NCBI RefSeq assembly: GCF_010093815.1
Contig: NW_022985552.1
Span: 1,411,943-1,475,942, forward strand
Direction: 5' to 3'
DNA length: 64,000 nt
Source of the DNA: Pseudovirgaria hyperparasitica
Taxonomy: Eukaryota > Ascomycota > Dothideomycetes > Acrospermales > Acrospermaceae
Below the pieces are notes generated by a model. The model saw only the letters and a list, made by a program, of their open reading frames with translations, searched no databases and was not told where the DNA came from. This document shows positions 1-55,341 of the stretch, one piece after another. A program made the translations under genes and the position numbers. Position 1 is the stretch's first letter, and each line of letters opens with the position of its first letter.

Positions 1-3000
1 GACAGTATCTAAGCATTGAAGAACCTCTATGATCGTCGTCATGCGAGATGCTGCTGGGATTATCCAGGTAAACATTTGCGAGGTTGCTCATGATATTACG
101 GCATTACGGGCATTAAATGTTCGCATTCTCGGTCGTTCGGAAACCTAGAAATGTCGCGTAACATTGAGTCTTTGACAATGTCAAGTTGTGCTCGCCCTCA
201 TATTGTACGGTTGGTTGGGCGATCGCAAATGATTTACGGCTTATACTAAATGCCGTCAAGTGGCAAGTTTACTACTGGACCATCGAGTCTCTCCAGTGCT
301 AGACATAGCCGCCCTGGGAGACCTCGCGACGCAGATTTCGCAATTGTGGCACAGTTGCCCTCTTGTCGTACCACGTAAGGTCTTGCTTGCAGTTACCGTT
401 TCTAGTCCTGGAAACGTTAGTCCATGCTTTAGCCCCAGATCTGCGATCACAGAGGCAGGCGTATTATCTTTATAGACCCCATTTGCAATCTCAAATCACT
501 ATGCTCGAGAGTGTTTGCTCAAGATGGCACCTCTCTTGCTATAAGTACGGTGTAGGCTTAGACGATGGTCGGCGTAGGGCATTGCTAGCGAGAAATGCTC
601 ATACTCCTACGCATCGTATAGCTCTTTAGGTAGGCCTAGCCTCTAACGCCTTATAGTTTAGCATGATATAATCCTTTGGAAAAACAAGTTGAACATCAAG
701 ACTATTGAAAGATGGCTGAAAAGGGAGCTGTTATTGGTCAAAAATCTCACTAGCAGATCTTCAGCATCTATCGAAATGACACGTTTTCGTACCTCTTAGC
801 AGTGTTGCAAACGTTCAGCATGTATTTCTCACAAGACTGTGATAATTTTGCGAGAATAATGCCAGCATCTCAGCGAAGCCCAGCAACTATGGTAGTCAAT
901 ACCTAGTCCGAACAATTAGCTGCTCATTCGGGCATCACTTGAGCACTACATCTTTGCGTGCGACGGTGCGTCCACATGTTGGTGTCGCGTGCTCACCGAC
1001 AGTTCCGCTGCCTTACCCTCCTCATTGTGTGAACTAGTGTCTATACAAACGCGTTCGATCACGTAAGGTCGCAGTATCATATTGAAGACTCTCAGCGCCA
1101 GTTGTTGATGATACAGGTCGTCGTGGTGTTTAGTGTTTGAGATTGAATAGATAGTCAAGGTCTGACTGTACTAGGTAGCTTTTCACCCGTGCTTATTAAT
1201 TCACCCATCCGGATGACTTCCGAGTCAATTGAGGTACCGTTCCATCCCCGGCCGCCTAGACATCCGTCAGCTGCCAAGCTTTCTTGGATTTCTTCCTCCT
1301 AGCCCCTACACTCGAGTCACCGTGCCGTCTCGACCATTGTCTGAGTACCCATTCGGCCGTGCTACATGCTCTGTTCTAAAGCAGAAGCTAGGAACCGATA
1401 TTGTGTGCACTATTTTCAGTAATCTTTCTCTATGTCGCCCCCGATGTGTCTCTGGAGTTTTGTTGCATCGCACGCAATATTAGACCAAGTGACGTGCTGG
1501 AGGGTATAAAAACACCCTCACTCCTTGATGATATTTAGCCTGGACTGAGCAAAACAGGATACTGTGGACTCTACTACCGATTGTTGAACTGTGACATAGT
1601 CATGACCAGTGCGACGAGGCATGAGCAAGAGCTTGGATGTGGCTAGTTTGACCAGGCTCCGAGGGTCCCCACCAAAACGCTTCAGCAGGTCTTCGAGATC
1701 CGTCACTACGTCACAGACCATGAGTTCCTTTCTTGACCAGGGGAACTTCAGCTACTTCGCCCAAAAGCATCTGACCGGCTTCTACAGGGGCCTTCCCTTC
1801 GCTCGAACGTCTAAGAGAACGAGGCTCCTTCCCTACAGTACGCCCTAATTATCCCGAAAATGTCGAATCAATCCAGCTCTCTTTTTGGTTCTGGCCAAGA
1901 TGCAATGTGTTTTAAAATGGAGAACAGGAGCATTTGAATCCGGATGAGACCGAACACTCCGCGCGTTTGAGACTCATTCCGTGCTCTGTTGGTTGCCTCC
2001 ACAGTCAGATGAACATGGGATTCAAGATATCGTACGTTTGGCAGCCTGACAGAACTTGCCAAGGCCTTATGGCCCATATATCACGTCTTGCACATTGCGC
2101 AGCGATATACAGCTTTGGATGAACATACTGGACCATATAAGACCAGGGGAAGCTATCATGCAGACACAAATAAACCGCAAGGATCACGACGGATAATCTC
2201 TACTCACCAATCATGCAACACCAACCTACCCGCTGTGTTGGCATCGACTGTTTTGTGCAGGTCTACCATATGAGGGCCCTTGCAGCCCCGAAGGTACTGG
2301 ACGATTGGTGAAGCCCCGCAAGCCATGTGTCTGAATTAAGCCTAAGGCGTAAGGCCTTTCTCTGAATGAGAAGGTGTTCGAGCTGCAGCAGGAGCCGCGC
2401 TCACTTACGCGGAGCTGAATCCTGTCTAGGACTACTTTTTCCGCTTAAGGCTTCATGGTTCCCCGCGATGACCACTCTCTTTACCGGGGCTGCGTCCAGA
2501 TGAGTCTGACCAGGCAAAACCCTGCCCCTGCAGCTTACCGCATATACTATGTACGGAACATGGTCTAGACGAGCACTCTTCTAATTTAGGTCCCCGGCCG
2601 GTTCGGGACGGTGGCTCCGCGGTGATCAAATCCGGCTCTTCTTGAATGGGTCCTGTATCATATCACCCAATCCTTCGCTGGACGGAGGATCAGATATTGT
2701 CAATTTTTGACAGACTCAACGATGGAGCTTCAATACTTCTCCAAGATGAGCGAACAGTGGTCCTGTGCAAATTCATCCAGCTTCAAGACCGAACTCAGGT
2801 GCAGGCTCTCAGGAAGCTATATCAATTATCAGCGTCCTAGTCATCTGCGTCACCTCTTCGTGCCAAGCACCGCCGTTCGATCGTAAACTTGGCCTGCATT
2901 CCTGCAGGATAGCTAGTTATAGTTGTTTGTCACTTACCTGGGTCGAACAACGGCTCCGAGGGATTGCTTTATCGGCTGATGGCCTCGTGCGTTGCTACCC

Positions 3001-3622
3001 CTAAAGTATTGGACACAGGAAGCCGTAAATCTACGCCATGAAGCAATTCTTGACTTGTTCTTATGTTGCTGGTCATAGCAGCTGAACGACACACCTGGCA
3101 AAACTCATCTTGGATGGAACTTAAGCCGGAGTGAGTTCATGGCTTGTCGAACTTGTAGATTGGCGCAGCATCCTGATGTGTGCAAACATCTAAAGGCCTG
3201 GCAATGTATCTAACTGGTAGAATCACCCTTACCTGCCATGCGGCCAACTTTCTGACATATCCTAAAAGTCCCCTTCACCTGCGATGAACGTTGCTTCGCT
3301 TATATGCTTGGAGACCCAGCCTACATGCAGATGTTGGCTATACGGGCGTCCTCGCTCACACCGAGCATGGATCAGGACCAATACTAGACATAAAACCACC
3401 TTCAATCGATCAAAGCCGAATGATTCGATGACAAGTCCGACTCAGTCGCTTATGCTGTTTGCTAAAGTAGCGTCCAATAAATCGTGGTCCTATTCTGGCA
3501 ATGTCCGTAGAACAGCTCGGGTGTTGGCAACAGGCGTCTCCTGAATATGCCAGGTCTGAGCCGAGAATGTCTTCGTCGGCTGAGTCTGAATGACCACAAG
3601 GAAAAGACAGGGCATAGGAATC
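1..3622. other. Gene-poor left flank
   Basis: No convincing gene was seen here. Both strands carry only short ORFs (none above about 90 codons) without recognisable motifs or splice-linked continuations. Base composition is near balanced, so this is not an obvious AT-rich mutated repeat. The right edge contains the promoter of the hydrophobin gene. Confidence 0.6.
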
Positions 3623-3628
3623 TATAAA
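3623..3628 (+). promoter_or_regulatory. TATA box of the hydrophobin gene
   Basis: The hexamer TATAAA lies about 120 bases before the hydrophobin ATG, followed by a pyrimidine-rich stretch. A TATA box with a short leader fits a strongly expressed secreted structural protein. Assignment rests on position and sequence only. Confidence 0.5.
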
Positions 3629-3743
3629 GTCAGCGCAAGATGCCCTTCTTCGTTATCACCATTATACTCATCAATCTTCTCTCCCCATCTTCAGCAGCCA
3701 ACAACTTTGAGATCCAAATCCCAACCACAAAGTCAGCACAATC

Positions 3744-4183
3744 ATGCAGTTCAATACCATTCTTGTGGCTCTCTTCGCATCCATGGCCTTTGCCCTCCCT
3801 ACCGATGGCGATGGCACCGAGCCCACCCCTCCCACAGAACCAACTTGTCCTCCCACAGGTCCTTCAGCTCCTTATGCTGCATGTGCCGGCCTATACTCTG
3901 AGGAACAGTGCTGTGCAACTGACGTCCTTGGCGTCGCCGACTTGAACTGTCTTACTCGTATGTATCGCCCTCGACCATGTCTGCGTCTCACTAACAGTTG
4001 CAGCTGGTGCCATCCCTTCGAGCCCAAGTGACTTCCAGAGCATCTGCGCTGCTGGTGGCCAGCGTGCACGCTGCTGTGTCATTCCAGTCGTAAGTGGTGT
4101 CGCTATCGAAAACGACTTGTACTAACAAATTTGCACAGGCGGGCCAGGCTGTTCTCTGTACCACCCCTATCGGAATCTCCTAA
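3744..4183 (+). CDS. Class II hydrophobin, secreted
   Basis: Three exons: 3744-3957, 4004-4089 and 4139-4183, with introns of 46 and 49 nt; the spliced protein is 114 aa. It begins with a clear signal peptide (MQFNTILVALFASMAFA), then an acidic Pro/Thr-rich spacer. The mature part has the eight-cysteine pattern of class II hydrophobins: C-x8-CC-x11-C-x16-C-x8-CC-x10-C. The spacings match the class II family closely, including the CC pairs and the short interval between C3 and C4. One extra cysteine lies in the Pro-rich spacer before the core. Such proteins are secreted and assemble at air-water or hydrophobic surfaces, coating hyphae and spores. The start is the only ATG giving a signal peptide. 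A TATA box lies about 120 bases upstream. Gene and class are secure; the role in development is inference. Confidence 0.95.
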
Positions 4184-5486
4184 ATGTGTGGTATCGCTAT
4201 AAGGCTTTTGTCCAGGAAGGTCGTCAGCTCAGTCCAGCTGGGCTCCCTTGCTTGGGAGACGAAATGAGAGGTTGCCCTTAACGCTACTGGATTTTGAGAC
4301 GAGGGTTTTGGAGTAGTATTCAAATATAATATATGAGGCTGTCTTTACCACGTGCTTCTCCATTCAAAGTGTGCATAATAGTGAATGGTTCAAGACTTAA
4401 AGCTCTGAATACCTAGGTGCCTGAGAAGCTATTCGTGTGCAAAGTTTCAAGCCGAGGTCAGCATATCTATAGTCAGCATACTCATATAAATATAATACAA
4501 GATATCGAATTTTACCTACATGTTAGATCCACAAATCTTAAAGTTAATTGTCGGTAATAAAGAAGAAGAAAAGGAGAAGTCCATGGACTATTTCTCTGCG
4601 AAGTGTGGTTTTCTCTCATTTTGCACTAGATTGAGGGAACTAAGGCTTGGAAAGATATACAGATCTAAGTACCTTATCTTACCCTAGAAGTCTATATATA
4701 AAAATCATGAGATCTTTTTAGAGGGTAAACAGATTTGGTATAGGTGATGGCGCGAAAACAGTAATTGAGGTACTATAGAATGGTGCTAGAATAGATAAGC
4801 TTGGACCGATTGGACATGCGTAATAATAAGGAGGAAGCCAGGTAGAAACGAAATGCACGGACATAAGTAGCCAGGATTGGAAATCTGTTGAAATCCGTGA
4901 TGACATCCCCATGTGGTCTAGGCTCAGATAGGCCTAGCTTCCGCTCAGGCTCCACATTTAATGCAGGATGACTGTGGGCAACCGCGTTCCATTGTTTCCC
5001 TGCGTTGACTAATCTTCGCGTATACCTCTTACGAGCATCATGCCATCTTTATGCCGGCTCTATCGGGGCCTCTATCGGGGTCTCTATCGAGGGGTTCGAA
5101 AGCCGTTAAACTATGTCCGGGTAGTCACAGAGCTGTCCAAGGGAAAACGTTGAGATTGGGCCAAGAAATGAGGATTAGACTTGACGCGGGTAAGGATGGA
5201 TCCATGAAAAGCATAAGGGGCAGCCTCGAAACAGTGGGCCTGCATCATGAAAAAAGATCTGTCCACAAGAATATTCATCTGGACTGTCGGACCCTGAAAG
5301 CAATGCTACTTGACCTATAAATCTCCTACGCGGCTTTTATTCTTCCTGGAATCAATTGAACTTAGATACTACCGGCGCCTCTACCACAACACTTCGCATG
5401 GTAATCTTGGACGTCTACTCGATCAAAGATCCGTCGACAAGTCTTCCACCCAGAAATTATCCGCTAGTGCAGTCTCATCCTCTGTG
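4184..5486. other. Intergenic, with AT-rich patch
   Basis: Spacer between the hydrophobin and the desaturase. The part from about 4300 to 4760 is AT-rich and has almost no coding potential. The desaturase frame stays open upstream of its first ATG back to about 5310 but has no ATG there, so a leader exon cannot be excluded. No other gene was seen. Confidence 0.5.
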
Positions 5487-6768
5487 ATGAAAGATTCTAC
5501 GACAGTAGAAATGCCTCCGAGCCAAGATGTTCCGGACATGAAAGTTCTTCGAAGTCTCATACCAAAACACTGTTTTAAGTCCTCATTCGTACGGTCTATG
5601 TCCTATGTTATTCGAGATATTATTTTAATGAGCATGCTGTTCTACGCCGGTTTGAAGCTCACATCTCTGGCTCCATCGATATCGCGCGCTGCCATGTTGA
5701 CTGCATACGGATTCACTCAGGGCCTCGTTTTCACTGGAATTTGGATCTTGGCACACGACTGTGGCCATGACTCGTTCTCACCGAACAAGAAGGCCAACTC
5801 CGTGGTTGGCTTCGTCCTGCATTCCATACTACTCGTGCCGTTCTTCAGCTGGAAGTATAGCCATGCGAGGCATCATCGATACACGAACCATATGGAGAAA
5901 GACACAGTCTTCGTGCCGCGCAGGGAGTCGGACCAGCGCAAATCGCTCCTGTCGAGGTCGTTAGAGCTTTTAGGCTATGCAGAGGATGCGCCGGTCGTAA
6001 ATGCTGGGACTTTGGTTATCCATCAGCTCTTTGGTTGGCCGGCGTATATCCTGCTCAATGCTGGGGGTGGGCAGCGGAGTTTGGTGACATCGGACAGATC
6101 GAAGTCATTGCGACAAAGTCACCTGGATCCTGGTGCCGATCTGTTCTCGACGGCCGAACACCCGTTTGTATTCCTGTCTAATGTGGGTATTGCGGTGGTT
6201 TTTGTAGCATTGTGGTTTGCCGCAAATGCTATTGGCGCCTACAACGTTTTCCTGCTTTATGGAATTCCGTATCTGTGGATGAATCATTGGATCGGTGAGT
6301 ATCATGCTGTCTTATATGTATTGTTAACTGACAAAGCTGCCAGTCGCAATTACGTATCTGCACCACACCCACCCTGAAGCGCCTCGCTACGAGCAAGAGT
6401 CGTGGACGTTTCAGAAGGGTGTTCTCGCAACAGTTGACCGTGATTTCGGGTTTATCGGACGCCACCTCTTCCACGGTATCATTGAATACCACGTCATCCA
6501 CCACATGTTTCCGTAAGAACTCCATCTTTGATTTGCGCACGTACTTCGACTAACACTCCATAGACGTATTCCCTTCTACCATGCTCAAGAAGCAACAGAA
6601 GCGATCAGTCCTTACCTAGGCAAAGCCTATATTCGGCAGAAATCGTCTTTCATCGGAGATTTGTGGACGACATACTCGACATGCACTTACGTGGCTGAGA
6701 GAGAGAAAGCCTCGGGTGAGGTTTACTGGACGAGTGCAAGCCTTAAAGCTGCCGCCCCCATTCGCTAG
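5487..6768 (+). CDS. Delta-12-type fatty acid desaturase, membrane-bound
   Basis: Three exons: 5487-6294, 6344-6512 and 6564-6768, giving 393 aa. The three histidine boxes of membrane-bound acyl desaturases are present: HDCGH and HARHH in exon 1, and HVIHH in exon 2 just before the second intron. Around them are fungal delta-12 signatures, including VAITYLHHTHP, created exactly by joining exons 1 and 2, and HVIHHMFPRIPFYHAQEA, joined across intron 2. Hydrophobic segments between the boxes fit an ER enzyme that bundles di-iron and converts oleate to linoleate. The chosen ATG is the first in frame; it gives a shorter N-terminus than many fungal homologues (often 440-480 aa). The frame is open for 59 codons upstream without an ATG, so an upstream exon is possible. 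Substrate specificity (delta-12 versus omega-3) is not decided by sequence alone. Confidence 0.9.
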
Positions 6769-9700
6769 GACTGACGGTCAAACGTGTTGCCTTCTAAGTT
6801 ACTATTATAGATTATAGAGAGCGGTGTATACATTTCGGCTCACATGTTCTAAGAAATAGGACAAATATAGAATTCTAACTTTATAGAGAGCTTGGGTGCC
6901 GCACGGGAAGCAGCTCTCCGACATTCTTACTTATATAGACGTACTCTTCACGGTTATGTCTACGTTTTGGTAGATATAGAGCATTGCTTAAAAACACCGT
7001 GCGATGCTACATCATTCACCTGCGGTAATCTACCATCAAAAGCTGAGATGAAAAGTGAGTAGCCACAGATCATATCGCGCTCATCCTGTCCCAGTCTGAC
7101 GTTTTCTGTGGCCCCTTGTTTATAGACAGCAGTCTTTGGGGCCCATCTCGCCTCCTATACTTTTAAAATACAGTAGATATCTGCTGGTGCACATTGCTCT
7201 TCGCTTAAAAATGATTGCGTAAATCTCATGTTCTACAAAACACGTCCCAGATGGAATCCCAATGCATTCCCGGGTTTCTTTCACTCCATATAGGCATCTT
7301 TAGACGGACTTATTCAATCGAACTACTCCAAATATACCCACCAAATCATAGATCTGAAAGGGCCTCTTAGGGAGTTCTACATCATGTTCGTGGCCACAAG
7401 CTACGGAGATTTGTGGTGACGTCACACCGCTTCACCGTCATCCCTCATCTATACCATCAATAACGATATAGAGAGCATCATCAAAGCTGCACGTCTATGC
7501 AGTCCATGAGCTCACACGAGGTAAAGTCCTCATGTTGGGCTCCCAACATAATGCTTGGTTCTCTGTTCTTCTAGTCCGGCGAAAAGGACCATATCATTAT
7601 CTTCGCCACATGGCCTGATCTCCTAAAAGCATGTAGTGAACCTAGGCTTGCTGTAACATCGCTTATGGACTAGTCTAGGAGGTTTAAGTAGGCTATAAGG
7701 TGATACTCCTATCGCCCTATTGGTCGATTACTGAAATAGACTATAACCATAGCTGGGGTTCAACTTCGGGACCTTGGATTCCTGATCTACTTTACTACAG
7801 CGACGGCGCATAACGTTATAGATTCCATGGCCATTACTCCGACACTACTATAGGTATAGGAACCTTGAAAAGTTTGAAGGAGCAGGGCCTGGTTCAGTCG
7901 ATTTTCGTCCACGGTGTTCTCTTAGACTAAAACAAGACAGAAATTAGCCCGCGTTCACGATGATAACACCAAATGCACGACTTGAAAGGTATACAAAATT
8001 CCACAAAAATAGCTTTCGATCCCTGCTCCGACAATATTTGCAGATTACCAATTCGTGTACTTGGACAGATGTTGAGTCGACCATTATTACATCTTGTGTA
8101 GCTCTCTATCGATGATGACTTAATAATATATCATTTGGCGATATTGGCGAGTCGATCTGATGGCGCAATCAGCACCATGACAGTCTTTTAAAAGTCTTTG
8201 TCATGGGTGCCTTGCACATTGTGGGCTGCGTACCCTTGAACACAGTCTCGACACTCCTGGGCACAGAGAATAAGAATTGTACTCTTGGCGACGAGGGAGA
8301 GAAGGTATGCCGTTGATGTGATGGGACTTCCTTACTGACTTGCGTGATGTCCACGTCTTGCTCACTTTTCTTCCCAGGAATTCATTTCGGTAGAACGGTC
8401 TGTCTGTTGGCGGTTGAGCAGACTCTTTGTTCTCTCCACGTTGTCATGGGCGCCTGCTGGTACTCTCCTATGGCGTGCTCGCGCTGATACTATTCCTCCT
8501 TGTGCAGCTGTGAGTAGGTCCACAGTGACTTGGCTTCGCCTCCCCATTGTATAGCAGCATGTTGTCTGCTCGTATATCATTGCCACTGAGTTATCGGTAA
8601 GGCTCAGAATTGAGTAAAAGGGAGTAGCGCTGCACAGTCCACAACACTGTGACTCGGATGACTTCAACAGGACGTGTAACGCTGCAAATGTCTGGCGTAT
8701 CGTGCAAGCTAGAAACACTCCCAAGAATTGTGTAGCATTCGTTCGACTTTGGCTGGTCATAAGAGGCAATGCCCTCAAAATTATGTTCCGTGTCTCATAT
8801 ATTTCTATCATTTGTTTCAATGATTCCCTTATCTCTTCCTGAAGATCTCTTTAACTTGTCTCTTACTATCACTTGTCTGCAATCTGATGCTTCGACCAGG
8901 CGGCTGCTGTATCCACGGGGCATGCAGTCTCTTTCTTAGTTACCTTTTCCAGTCCCTTTTTCCAGTCCCTTTTTCCAGTCCCTTTTGTCTGATGGTCTTT
9001 TCTACGCCGGTACGAATATAAGCCCTCTAAGCTCCAAGCACCGAACCTTTCGCCTTCCCTGCGCGCGAAACACTCTTCTAGCCCTCTGGCCACTCCACCC
9101 CCGCTCACAGAGTCAGCAAGGAAGAGCAATACTCTTCGACAGAGGATGCTCATCGAGCTGTACTCACAATGGCTCATAGTGCTCTTTATGCCGTCTAGAA
9201 ATGTTCGAATTGGAGCGACACGTGTCGGCATACTTTGCTTCGTGGTGAACCTGTAATGCTGTTACTCTTGGACCTCGACGCCTAGAAAAGGGGATATTAG
9301 TCTGTATTTCCTGTTACTCTGTTTGGTACATGGTATGGGGTTGGTCTGGCTCGCATTCGGCTGCGTGCGTGTGAAGATCAGGAGTAACGGAAATCTTGCC
9401 CATCCTAGGCTGCTTGAATGTGAGTAGGCAGGAAGAGAGCCAAGAGGGCGACCGGGTACTAACAGCAGTCTTAGTAGCGCCGAGTGTTGGATCTGCCCTC
9501 TTGCTGCGAGGTCGAATTATCGCTAAGTTGTGTTGGGAGAGGCTTTCCGCTTGTTGATTCTGAGATGCGGGACGCAAATAGTCAGGGAGTAACTGGGATA
9601 AGGATCTCGTACTCAGCGCGACAGAGAGTATAGAAGCTTGCGATACTCGATTTGCTGTTGGCCTACAGAGAGACCGACTTGTAATTATGATCAATAGTAG

Positions 9701-11134: not shown

Positions 11135-11143
11135 AAAAAAAAA
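11135..11143 (-). terminator. Pol III terminator of U6
   Basis: A run of nine T on the minus strand (A on the plus strand) directly follows the U6 3' region. Runs of T in the coding strand end pol III transcripts. Confidence 0.85.
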
Positions 11144-11246
11144 TGTTGTTATCTCTTTGATTAAGTCATAGTCATCCTTGTGCAGGGGCAATGCTAATCT
11201 TCTCTGTATCGTTTCATATTGATCAAATGCCCGAAGGCGAAGGATT
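11140..11246 (-). ncRNA. U6: U6 spliceosomal snRNA
   Basis: Read on the minus strand the segment contains the invariant core of U6: GAAACGATACAGAGAAGATT with the ACAGAGA box, followed by AGC (catalytic triad), CCCCTGCACAAGGATGAC of the internal stem-loop region, and a 3' part ending in a T-run. The 5' end forms the expected short stem-loop (CCTTCGCCTTCGG-like), followed by the CATTTGATCAAT block. U6 base-pairs with U2 and the 5' splice site and forms the catalytic centre of the spliceosome. Length is about 105 nt, as usual. The exact 5' end (about 11243-11246) is estimated from the TATA box distance. Identity is certain from the conserved core; no intron is evident. Confidence 0.96.
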
Positions 11247-53476: not shown

Positions 53477-55341
53477 TCACACATTGCAAGCTGCCAATCT
53501 CGCAACTAAACGCAAGCAGTCCTCCTCCTGTTGCATCCTCGCGTTCGGTCTCATGCTCTCTTTCGATTGCACTCCCAGACATGTCTGCACCACTGCCATG
53601 TATGTTTCGCCGCAGCAATGCTTGAGATGCGGCACAACCTGGCCTACAATGTATGCATGCACATCGTCGGCACTCCAATGTGATGTCTTAGCCGGCCCAA
53701 CATAGCCATCGAGATCTCTCCACAGCCCAATCTCGAGTAGGACCAGTCCCAAAGAGTACATGTCGTACGTAGGCTCGTATACTCGCGAGGGATCGTTCTG
53801 TTTGTCGGGATGCTGGTACTTGTCGAGCTTGATGAGTCTGGGCTGTGCGGAGCGCTTTGGACCAGGTGCTGCGTACTGTTGAACGAATTGTGTGTGGCGT
53901 GAAAAGCCCCAGCCCATGAGGTTGACGCGTTGCCATTCAATGTCGTTGCGATTGATCGGCCGCTGGTCCCTTGGAAAGAAGATGATGGACGTGGGTCGGA
54001 TGTTCTTGTGGATCCAGCCTGTGGCGTGCATTGCTGTCACTGCCTCCAGAAGCTCTTTGGCGAGAGAGAAGCGTCTGTTAAGAGACATGGCATTGAACGT
54101 GCGGAGTACTTCAGCTAGAGAGACAGGCGTGCGAGGTATGAGCGCATCAGGAACCATCCGGGCCCCTGAGATTGAGATCCCCAGATTTTGCGGTAGCTTG
54201 TACACGAAGCCTATACGGTGATGCTCCGAGTCCTTGAACAGCCCATAGCAGAAGCGAGAGAGAAGTGACGTTGGCGCTTGTTTCGAGGTCACCAGATACC
54301 CAAGCTTGAGGACATTGTCATGCGTATCTTGATCGGGCCTACCATGGTCGTCCAGGTAAGACTTGAACTCTATCAGTACGACCGCCTCAAATCCGCGGTC
54401 CATATCATTTCTTCCCCTCCAGATTGCCATACAAGACATTGGATTCGCGTCAAAACGGTTCTGGTGTAGCTCAAATTCATCTCTGCGGAGATTGACCAGT
54501 CTGGCCCTGCTTGTATCGTTGAGCGGCTGCGAAACGCGCTCTGCTAGGACCCGAATCGAAGTGAGATCTGCCATTGCATCGTATGTGCCTTTTGCCATTG
54601 GGCCCGCTTGTGCAGATAACTCTTCCGCAAGAGAGCGGTCCAGCGCTAGGCCGACCTTATTACCGCTCTGTCCTGCGACCAGGCTGGTCACAGAGAGAAT
54701 CTTCAAAGGTCCCAGCGCTCCATCAGGGCATAGGAAGTGAAGTGAATTGTTGTACGATTCAAGATCCCTAGTCAACTCTGCGACCTTGTCGCGGTCTTTC
54801 AGAACCCACGTGCAACGCCGGAGAATGGTCAGCCGCTGCCGCAGGAAAACAGCCTTTCTCTGTATCTGTTTCGTCTGATCCCGAGACGGCTGGGGTAATG
54901 CATCCCGATTCTTCTGACCCAGGAATCAGCGCGTGGTACATTAACATCACAGAAATTCCATACCATATTCTCACCACGCGGATATCTCAATTCCACCCCG
55001 TACTTCTTCAGTACATCTTTGTCCGAGAACAAGCTCGCGATACTCTCCAGCGCCAGCTCTACCCCCGTGATCTTGGCCGGATTCTGCAACAGGTACTCCC
55101 CAATCTTGCGATTGCGGTGCATCAACTCAAGCGACCCCTCATTTGCCGTGATGGCTGGATCATGCCGTGATATCTCCCAATAGAACCCCCAAGCCCACAG
55201 ACGGGACTTCTGGATGAGCAGTGAGCGCGTGAATTTGAGCGTGCTCTTCTCTGCACTCTTCACGTTCTCGTAGAAGAGGTAGCCGTCGCGACAGGCAGAA
55301 TACAGCCCGATGATGCCGATAGCAAGACCGGCAGCTTCCAT
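53477..55341 (-). CDS. HeLo-domain plus pseudokinase protein (MLKL-like layout)
   Basis: Two exons, 55341-54964 and 54889-53477, join in phase 0 across a 74-nt intron and give 596 aa. The N-terminus, MEAAGLAIGIIGLYSACRDG, is that of the fungal HeLo (prion-inhibition and propagation) domain, with helices continuing through VLKDRDKVAELTRDLESYNN to about residue 215. HeLo is the helical membrane-attacking domain of HET-S and related to the four-helix bundle of MLKL. The C-terminal half (about 290-590) is a protein kinase fold: a conserved beta3-like lysine (LIEFKSYL, about 302), then GWIHKNIRPTSIIFF where Asn 422 replaces the catalytic Asp of HRD, and NLMGWGFSR in place of DFG. YDMYSLGLVLLEIG is the normal alphaF region. 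It is therefore a pseudokinase. The role in cell death or incompatibility is inferred from the domains. Confidence 0.9.

What the first reader, a model, noticed from the sequence alone, without database searches (positions are those of the whole stretch)
53477..55341. HeLo domain fused to a pseudokinase: an MLKL-like layout in a fungus
The N-terminus matches the HeLo (prion-inhibition) domain; the C-terminal half is a kinase fold in which HRD is HKN and DFG is MGW, so phosphotransfer is unlikely. HeLo and the MLKL four-helix bundle are thought to be related cell-killing modules. MLKL couples that bundle to a pseudokinase switch. Here the same order (killer domain, then pseudokinase) is encoded in one 596-aa protein without an amyloid motif at the end. 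It may be a heterokaryon-incompatibility or self/nonself effector gated by the pseudokinase. Architectures of this kind have relatives in fungi, but this gene's gating is undescribed as far as I can tell.
Basis: partly seen in the sequence, partly recalled or inferred. Interest (0 to 1): 0.75.

Follow-up and report, generated by a model that had tools for sequence, protein, structure and literature searches.

The report
Fungal cell-death domain fused to pseudokinase
A fungal gene joins a domain of the membrane-attacking cell-death type to a dead kinase, laid out like the mammalian death protein MLKL; it is a real but uncharacterised example of a layout already noted in fungi.

The parts
54964..55341 (-). 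Exon 1 (residues 1-126), start codon at 55341
54914..54963 (-). Intron, 50 nt, GTATGG...GGTCAG, with a CTGAT branch-like site 12 nt before its end (branch motif recalled, seen by eye)
   Evidence: the joined protein equals the public record
53477..54913 (-). Exon 2 (residues 127-604 and stop)
54722..55329 (-). HeLo domain PF14479, residues 5-190, split by the intron
55255..55335 (-). N-terminal helix, residues 3-29, hydrophobic (Kyte-Doolittle 1.83 over residues 3-17), low model confidence; candidate membrane-attacking helix by analogy with HET-S
   Evidence: function inferred
54497..54715 (-). Linker of four helices, residues 193-265, at the place of the MLKL brace (by position only); around it (191-285) identity to the Patellaria relative is 22%, against 48% in HeLo and 40% in the pseudokinase
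53480..54436 (-). Pseudokinase domain, residues about 286-604
54362..54364 (-). Lys310, at the place of the beta-3 (VAIK) lysine; K in 16 of 30 aligned members, itself included
54002..54010 (-). HKN (428-430) in place of HRD
53906..53914 (-). GWG (460-462) in place of DFG
53762..53764 (-). Asp510, structural Asp of helix F (role recalled), kept in 30 of 30

Best explanation
A fungal HeLo-pseudokinase: a candidate cell-death executioner working like MLKL. At rest the brace-like helices and the dead kinase domain hold the HeLo bundle and its hydrophobic first helix inactive. An upstream signal received by the pseudokinase (phosphorylation by another kinase, or a partner protein) changes its shape, the protein oligomerises, and the first helix enters the plasma membrane and kills the hyphal compartment. 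Shown here: the gene, the HeLo homology, the linker helices and kinase fold (predicted), and the loss of catalytic residues across the aligned family. Inferred: killing, restraint, trigger and biological role.
For: HeLo E 8.5e-18; profile match to solved HET-s HeLo, E 5.2e-12 over residues 2-195; hydrophobic N-terminus; helical linker and kinase fold; catalytic Asp absent in 30 of 30 and DFG Asp absent in 30 of 30 aligned members, yet helix-F Asp kept in 30 of 30, as expected of a conserved non-catalytic switch. HeLo and pseudokinase are better conserved than the linker in the nearest full-length relative. HET-S HeLo permeabilises liposomes and is cytotoxic in yeast and bacteria (PMC12881547, passages).
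Against: No toxicity or binding data. PMC10197012 (passage) names a natural HeLo-dead variant, HET-s, and a single substitution H33P (the sentence was cut; that it alone kills the activity is recalled), so homology does not prove killing. Lys310 is kept in only 16 of 30. One paralog in the same genome (L005) keeps an Asp at the HRD position (HKD), so the wider family is not uniformly dead. No upstream partner was seen among the window ORFs scanned.
Confidence: 0.6

Rival explanations
1. Signalling scaffold: the HeLo bundle is a non-toxic oligomerisation module and the pseudokinase a docking platform; no killing by this protein.
For: A HeLo-dead natural variant exists (HET-s, PMC10197012 passage); residues 1-30 have low model confidence; some relatives have no HeLo listed, for example P0005-P0008, though their gene models may be cut.
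Against: The N-terminus is hydrophobic here (1.83) and in the full-length relatives P0002-P0004 (1.46-1.70); HeLo identity to P0002 is 48%, higher than in the pseudokinase, 40%.
Confidence: 0.25
2. NLR-driven effector: an NLR-type receptor activates it, as NWD2 activates HET-S.
For: A paralog on contig C2 lies 1.6 kb from ORFs with NPHP3_N (a STAND-type domain, recalled) and ankyrin repeats on the same strand (L012); [quoted passage not shown]
Against: No such domain at E <= 0.001 in the 28 window ORFs of 180 aa or more other than this gene's exons (30 listed); shorter exons were not scanned. No C-terminal extension that could hold an amyloid motif; no PF11558 row at E <= 1.
Confidence: 0.1
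3. Catalytically active kinase or other transferase by an unusual mechanism.
For: Lys310 is kept; relative P0002 has Glu at the DFG Asp place; paralog L005 has HKD.
Against: This protein lacks the catalytic Asp, the catalytic-loop Asn (Ser435) and the DFG Asp, and no glycine-rich loop is visible ahead of Lys310 (sequence).
Confidence: 0.03

Closest known systems
Fungal HELL + kinase/pseudokinase proteins (one sentence in PMC12881547) and public HeLo + DUF7580 proteins such as Trichoderma simmonsii P0004
   Same: Same domain order; P0004 has also lost both aspartates
   Different: This protein scores below the DUF7580 cut-off; it lies with Patellaria and Coniosporium relatives inside an 11-row set that also holds P0004
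MLKL of mammals, AtMLKL and Pm13 of plants
   Same: Four-helix killer bundle, helical connection, C-terminal kinase fold; pseudokinase in MLKL and AtMLKL (PMC10951266 passages)
   Different: N-terminus is HET-S-type HeLo; the kinase half has no preferred match to MLKL; no RIPK3-like partner known; Pm13 keeps the catalytic residues
HET-S/HET-s of Podospora anserina
   Same: HeLo domain, profile match E 5.2e-12

Membership tests
HeLo domain (PF14479) | Profile match above curated cut-off at the N-terminus | tested here: met
   65.3 bits, cut-off 23.2
HeLo domain (PF14479) | Membrane-targeting, cytotoxic first helix | not testable with these tools
   Only hydrophobicity measured
DUF7580 (PF24476) | Score above curated cut-off | tested here: not met
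   22 bits, cut-off 27; not among the 3 own-genome places found with this family. E is 1.4e-4 and 28 of 30 aligned members match at E <= 0.01, some below cut-off, so related but not filed as a member
Protein kinase fold | Bilobal kinase fold | tested here: met
Pseudokinase | Loss of HRD Asp and DFG Asp | tested here: met
   HKN and GWG
MLKL | Order four-helix bundle, brace, pseudokinase | tested here: met
   the brace is equated by position only
MLKL | Kinase domain closer to MLKL than to other kinases | tested here: inconclusive
   Profile hits GCN2 E 3.9e-6, eIF2-alpha kinase 3 6.2e-6, MLKL 1.9e-5
MLKL | Activation by a RIPK3-type kinase, oligomerisation, membrane pore | not testable with these tools
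   needs experiment
HET-S amyloid effector | C-terminal amyloid signalling motif | tested here: not met
   Protein ends with the kinase C-lobe; no PF11558 row at E <= 1; other amyloid motif models were not run
Heterokaryon-incompatibility gene | Balanced allelic polymorphism and incompatibility between strains | not testable with these tools
   One genome held

The most novel reading that the evidence does not exclude
Fungi hold a necroptosis-like relay of their own: an active kinase switches a HeLo-pseudokinase executioner, as RIPK3 switches MLKL. Five relatives fuse a kinase with HHD and DFG intact, through a segment with at most sub-threshold HeLo resemblance, to the same pseudokinase type; these would be the fused record of a kinase-pseudokinase pair that in P. 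hyperparasitica acts in trans.
Probability: 0.22. Interest if true: 0.7.

Novelty: new member of a known kind. Interest (0 to 1): 0.35.

Why it matters
MLKL-type gating (a dead kinase holding a membrane-killing bundle) is established in animals, and MLKL-like proteins act in plant immunity. If the fungal HeLo-pseudokinases work the same way, the switch is either much older than animals or was invented repeatedly, and fungi would let that be tested directly. The kinase-pseudokinase fusions give a concrete guess for the missing upstream kinase.

Tried and rejected
Other splice choices (33 in-frame donor-acceptor pairs in the stretch examined): the 596-aa and 591-aa versions were set aside for the 604-aa one on the public record and the HeLo score. 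Missing aspartates in another register: none. MLKL as best structural match: the whole-protein structure searches returned kinases in general; MLKL is not in the 50 rows shown by either, which proves nothing. The HeLo part was not folded alone, because the folding tool names whole returned proteins or window DNA and this domain spans an intron; its fold rests on the sequence match to HET-s. A HeLo bundle in the kinase-pseudokinase fusions: weak support only. Pfam HeLo gives 16.2 bits for P0017 (cut-off 23.2) and no row at E <= 0.01 for P0020 or P0022; P0019 and P0024 were not scanned singly. hhalign probability is 5.1% or less. The P0020 model is poor (pLDDT 61.4, pTM 0.55), its stretch 452-620 being helical. 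A fused kinase-pseudokinase gene in the window's own genome: none seen; the kinase half of P0020 hits other places than the pseudokinase half, but the DNA upstream of the C6 paralog reads N from about 1.7 kb away (L010), so C6 is not fully settled. Literature on DUF7580: no paper in the library holds the term. Two nematode-fungus papers opened for 'pseudokinase' were irrelevant in the passages seen. NCBIfam gave only far-below-cut-off kinase matches.

Full report
What is there. The finding lies on the - strand at 53477-55341. Two exons joined by one intron give an open protein. The protein collection holds the same gene as EJ05DRAFT_287882 of Pseudovirgaria hyperparasitica (Dothideomycetes, Acrospermales), 604 aa and identical to the 50-nt-intron translation.

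HeLo half. PF14479 matches residues 5-190 at E 8.5e-18. A profile of five sequences (this protein, P0002, P0003 and two own-genome paralogs) matches the solved HET-s HeLo domain at E 5.2e-12 over profile positions 2-195; this protein alone does not find it (no HET-s among its 36 rows at E <= 1). The first helix (3-29) is hydrophobic (Kyte-Doolittle 1.83 over residues 3-17) and modelled with low confidence. Whether it kills is not known.

Catalytic state. Lys310 sits at the beta-3 lysine place. Among the 30 aligned proteins (P0001-P0030, this protein and near-copies included, so not independent) the catalytic Asp is kept in 0 of 30 (N 15, S 11, G 2, T 1, A 1), the DFG Asp in 0 of 30 (G 29, E 1), the catalytic-loop Asn in 17 of 30, the beta-3 Lys in 16 of 30, the HRD His in 30 of 30 and the helix-F Asp in 30 of 30. 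The pseudokinase state is therefore a property of this set, not of this gene. A result against uniformity: of three further HeLo + kinase-like genes in the same assembly, L001 has HKS and GFD, L003 has HKG and GFD, but L005 has HKD and SFD.

Family and spread. In the own assembly HeLo is matched at six places, two of which are the exons of this gene, and DUF7580 at three, on C2, C3 and C12, not here. A search with the whole protein finds this gene and three others, on C2, C3 and C6. For these three Pfam gives HeLo above cut-off; DUF7580 is above cut-off for C2 and C3 and below it for C6 (21.4 against 27). Database searches found 3 proteins with the whole 596-aa form, 4 with the five-sequence profile and 26 with residues 380-604, the gene itself included each time; the first two scored only about 8,000 candidates sharing most words, so numbers are lower bounds. 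Of the 30 proteins, 28 match DUF7580 and 16 match HeLo at E <= 0.01, sub-cut-off matches included. In a tree of the pseudokinase part (33 rows) the window gene groups with Coniosporium P0005 and Patellaria P0002 (93/89) inside a supported set of 11 (100/99), apart from its own-genome paralogs, of which L005 is a long branch and unsure.

Kinase-pseudokinase fusions. P0017, P0019, P0020, P0022 and P0024 carry a kinase part with HHD and DFG intact, then the same type of pseudokinase; in the three measured the stretch between is 186-203 residues. P0020 (Xylariaceae sp. AK1471, 944 aa) has most of a kinase domain (203-456, E 3.2e-29); in P0017 and P0022 the Pfam match starts mid-domain near the N-terminus, so those gene models look cut. 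All five fall on one side of a branch (84/84, not starred). The middle stretch resembles HeLo only weakly (16.2 bits in P0017, below cut-off; no row for P0020 or P0022; hhalign 5.1% or less), and the model of P0020 is of low confidence. No such fusion was seen in the own genome, with one place partly unreadable. This is a lead for kinase control of the pseudokinase, not proof.

Neighbourhood. Of 30 window ORFs of 180 aa or more (stop to stop, overlaps thinned), two are this gene's exons; in the other 28 no NLR-type, kinase or HeLo domain was found at E <= 0.001. Near neighbours include a GDSL hydrolase, an ion channel and ETF alpha. Shorter exons were not scanned. So this is not a visible two-gene NLR cluster. 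A paralog on C2 does lie 1.6 kb from NPHP3_N and ankyrin ORFs.

What is known. [quoted passage not shown] MLKL-type proteins of plants are described in PMC10951266 and PMC9950082 (passages). In the listings of seven searches (open-access library only) and in passages of eleven papers opened no experimentally characterised fungal HeLo-pseudokinase was seen; the 2016 HELLP paper was not held and may say more.

Verdict. Observation confirmed with two corrections. The MLKL-like reading is good as 'works like' (confidence 0.6, inferred) and unproven as 'is an MLKL'. New member of a known kind; the fusions are the part most worth following.

Noticed in passing
L012 (G000:C2:1084000-1093000), 2918-4786 and 6420-9000, both - strand: A HeLo + DUF7580 paralog lies 1.6 kb from ORFs with NPHP3_N (STAND-type, recalled) and ankyrin repeats, an NLR-like neighbour.
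   Followed up: partly
P0017, P0019, P0020, P0022, P0024: Proteins joining an intact-looking kinase (HHD, DFG) to a pseudokinase of the same type, with a middle stretch of about 190-200 residues in the three measured.
   Followed up: partly
L005 (G000:C6:81076-84351): HeLo + kinase-like paralog that keeps Asp at the HRD position (HKD) but not at DFG (SFD), with a long C-terminal extension.
   Followed up: no
L008 (G000:C12:937852-941385): A DUF7580 place (31.6 bits) without a HeLo match in the own-genome search; the ORF upstream starts with a HeLo-like hydrophobic stretch by eye.
   Followed up: no
L014 4039-5583 (+): A HeLo ORF (E 6.7e-29) without a kinase match and with a long low-complexity tail.
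   Followed up: no
window 11138-11238 (-): U6 spliceosomal RNA gene (Rfam RF00026, 79.6 bits).
   Followed up: no
window 59253-59918 (-): Ion-channel exon (Ion_trans_2), probably of a potassium channel by the look of the sequence.
   Followed up: no
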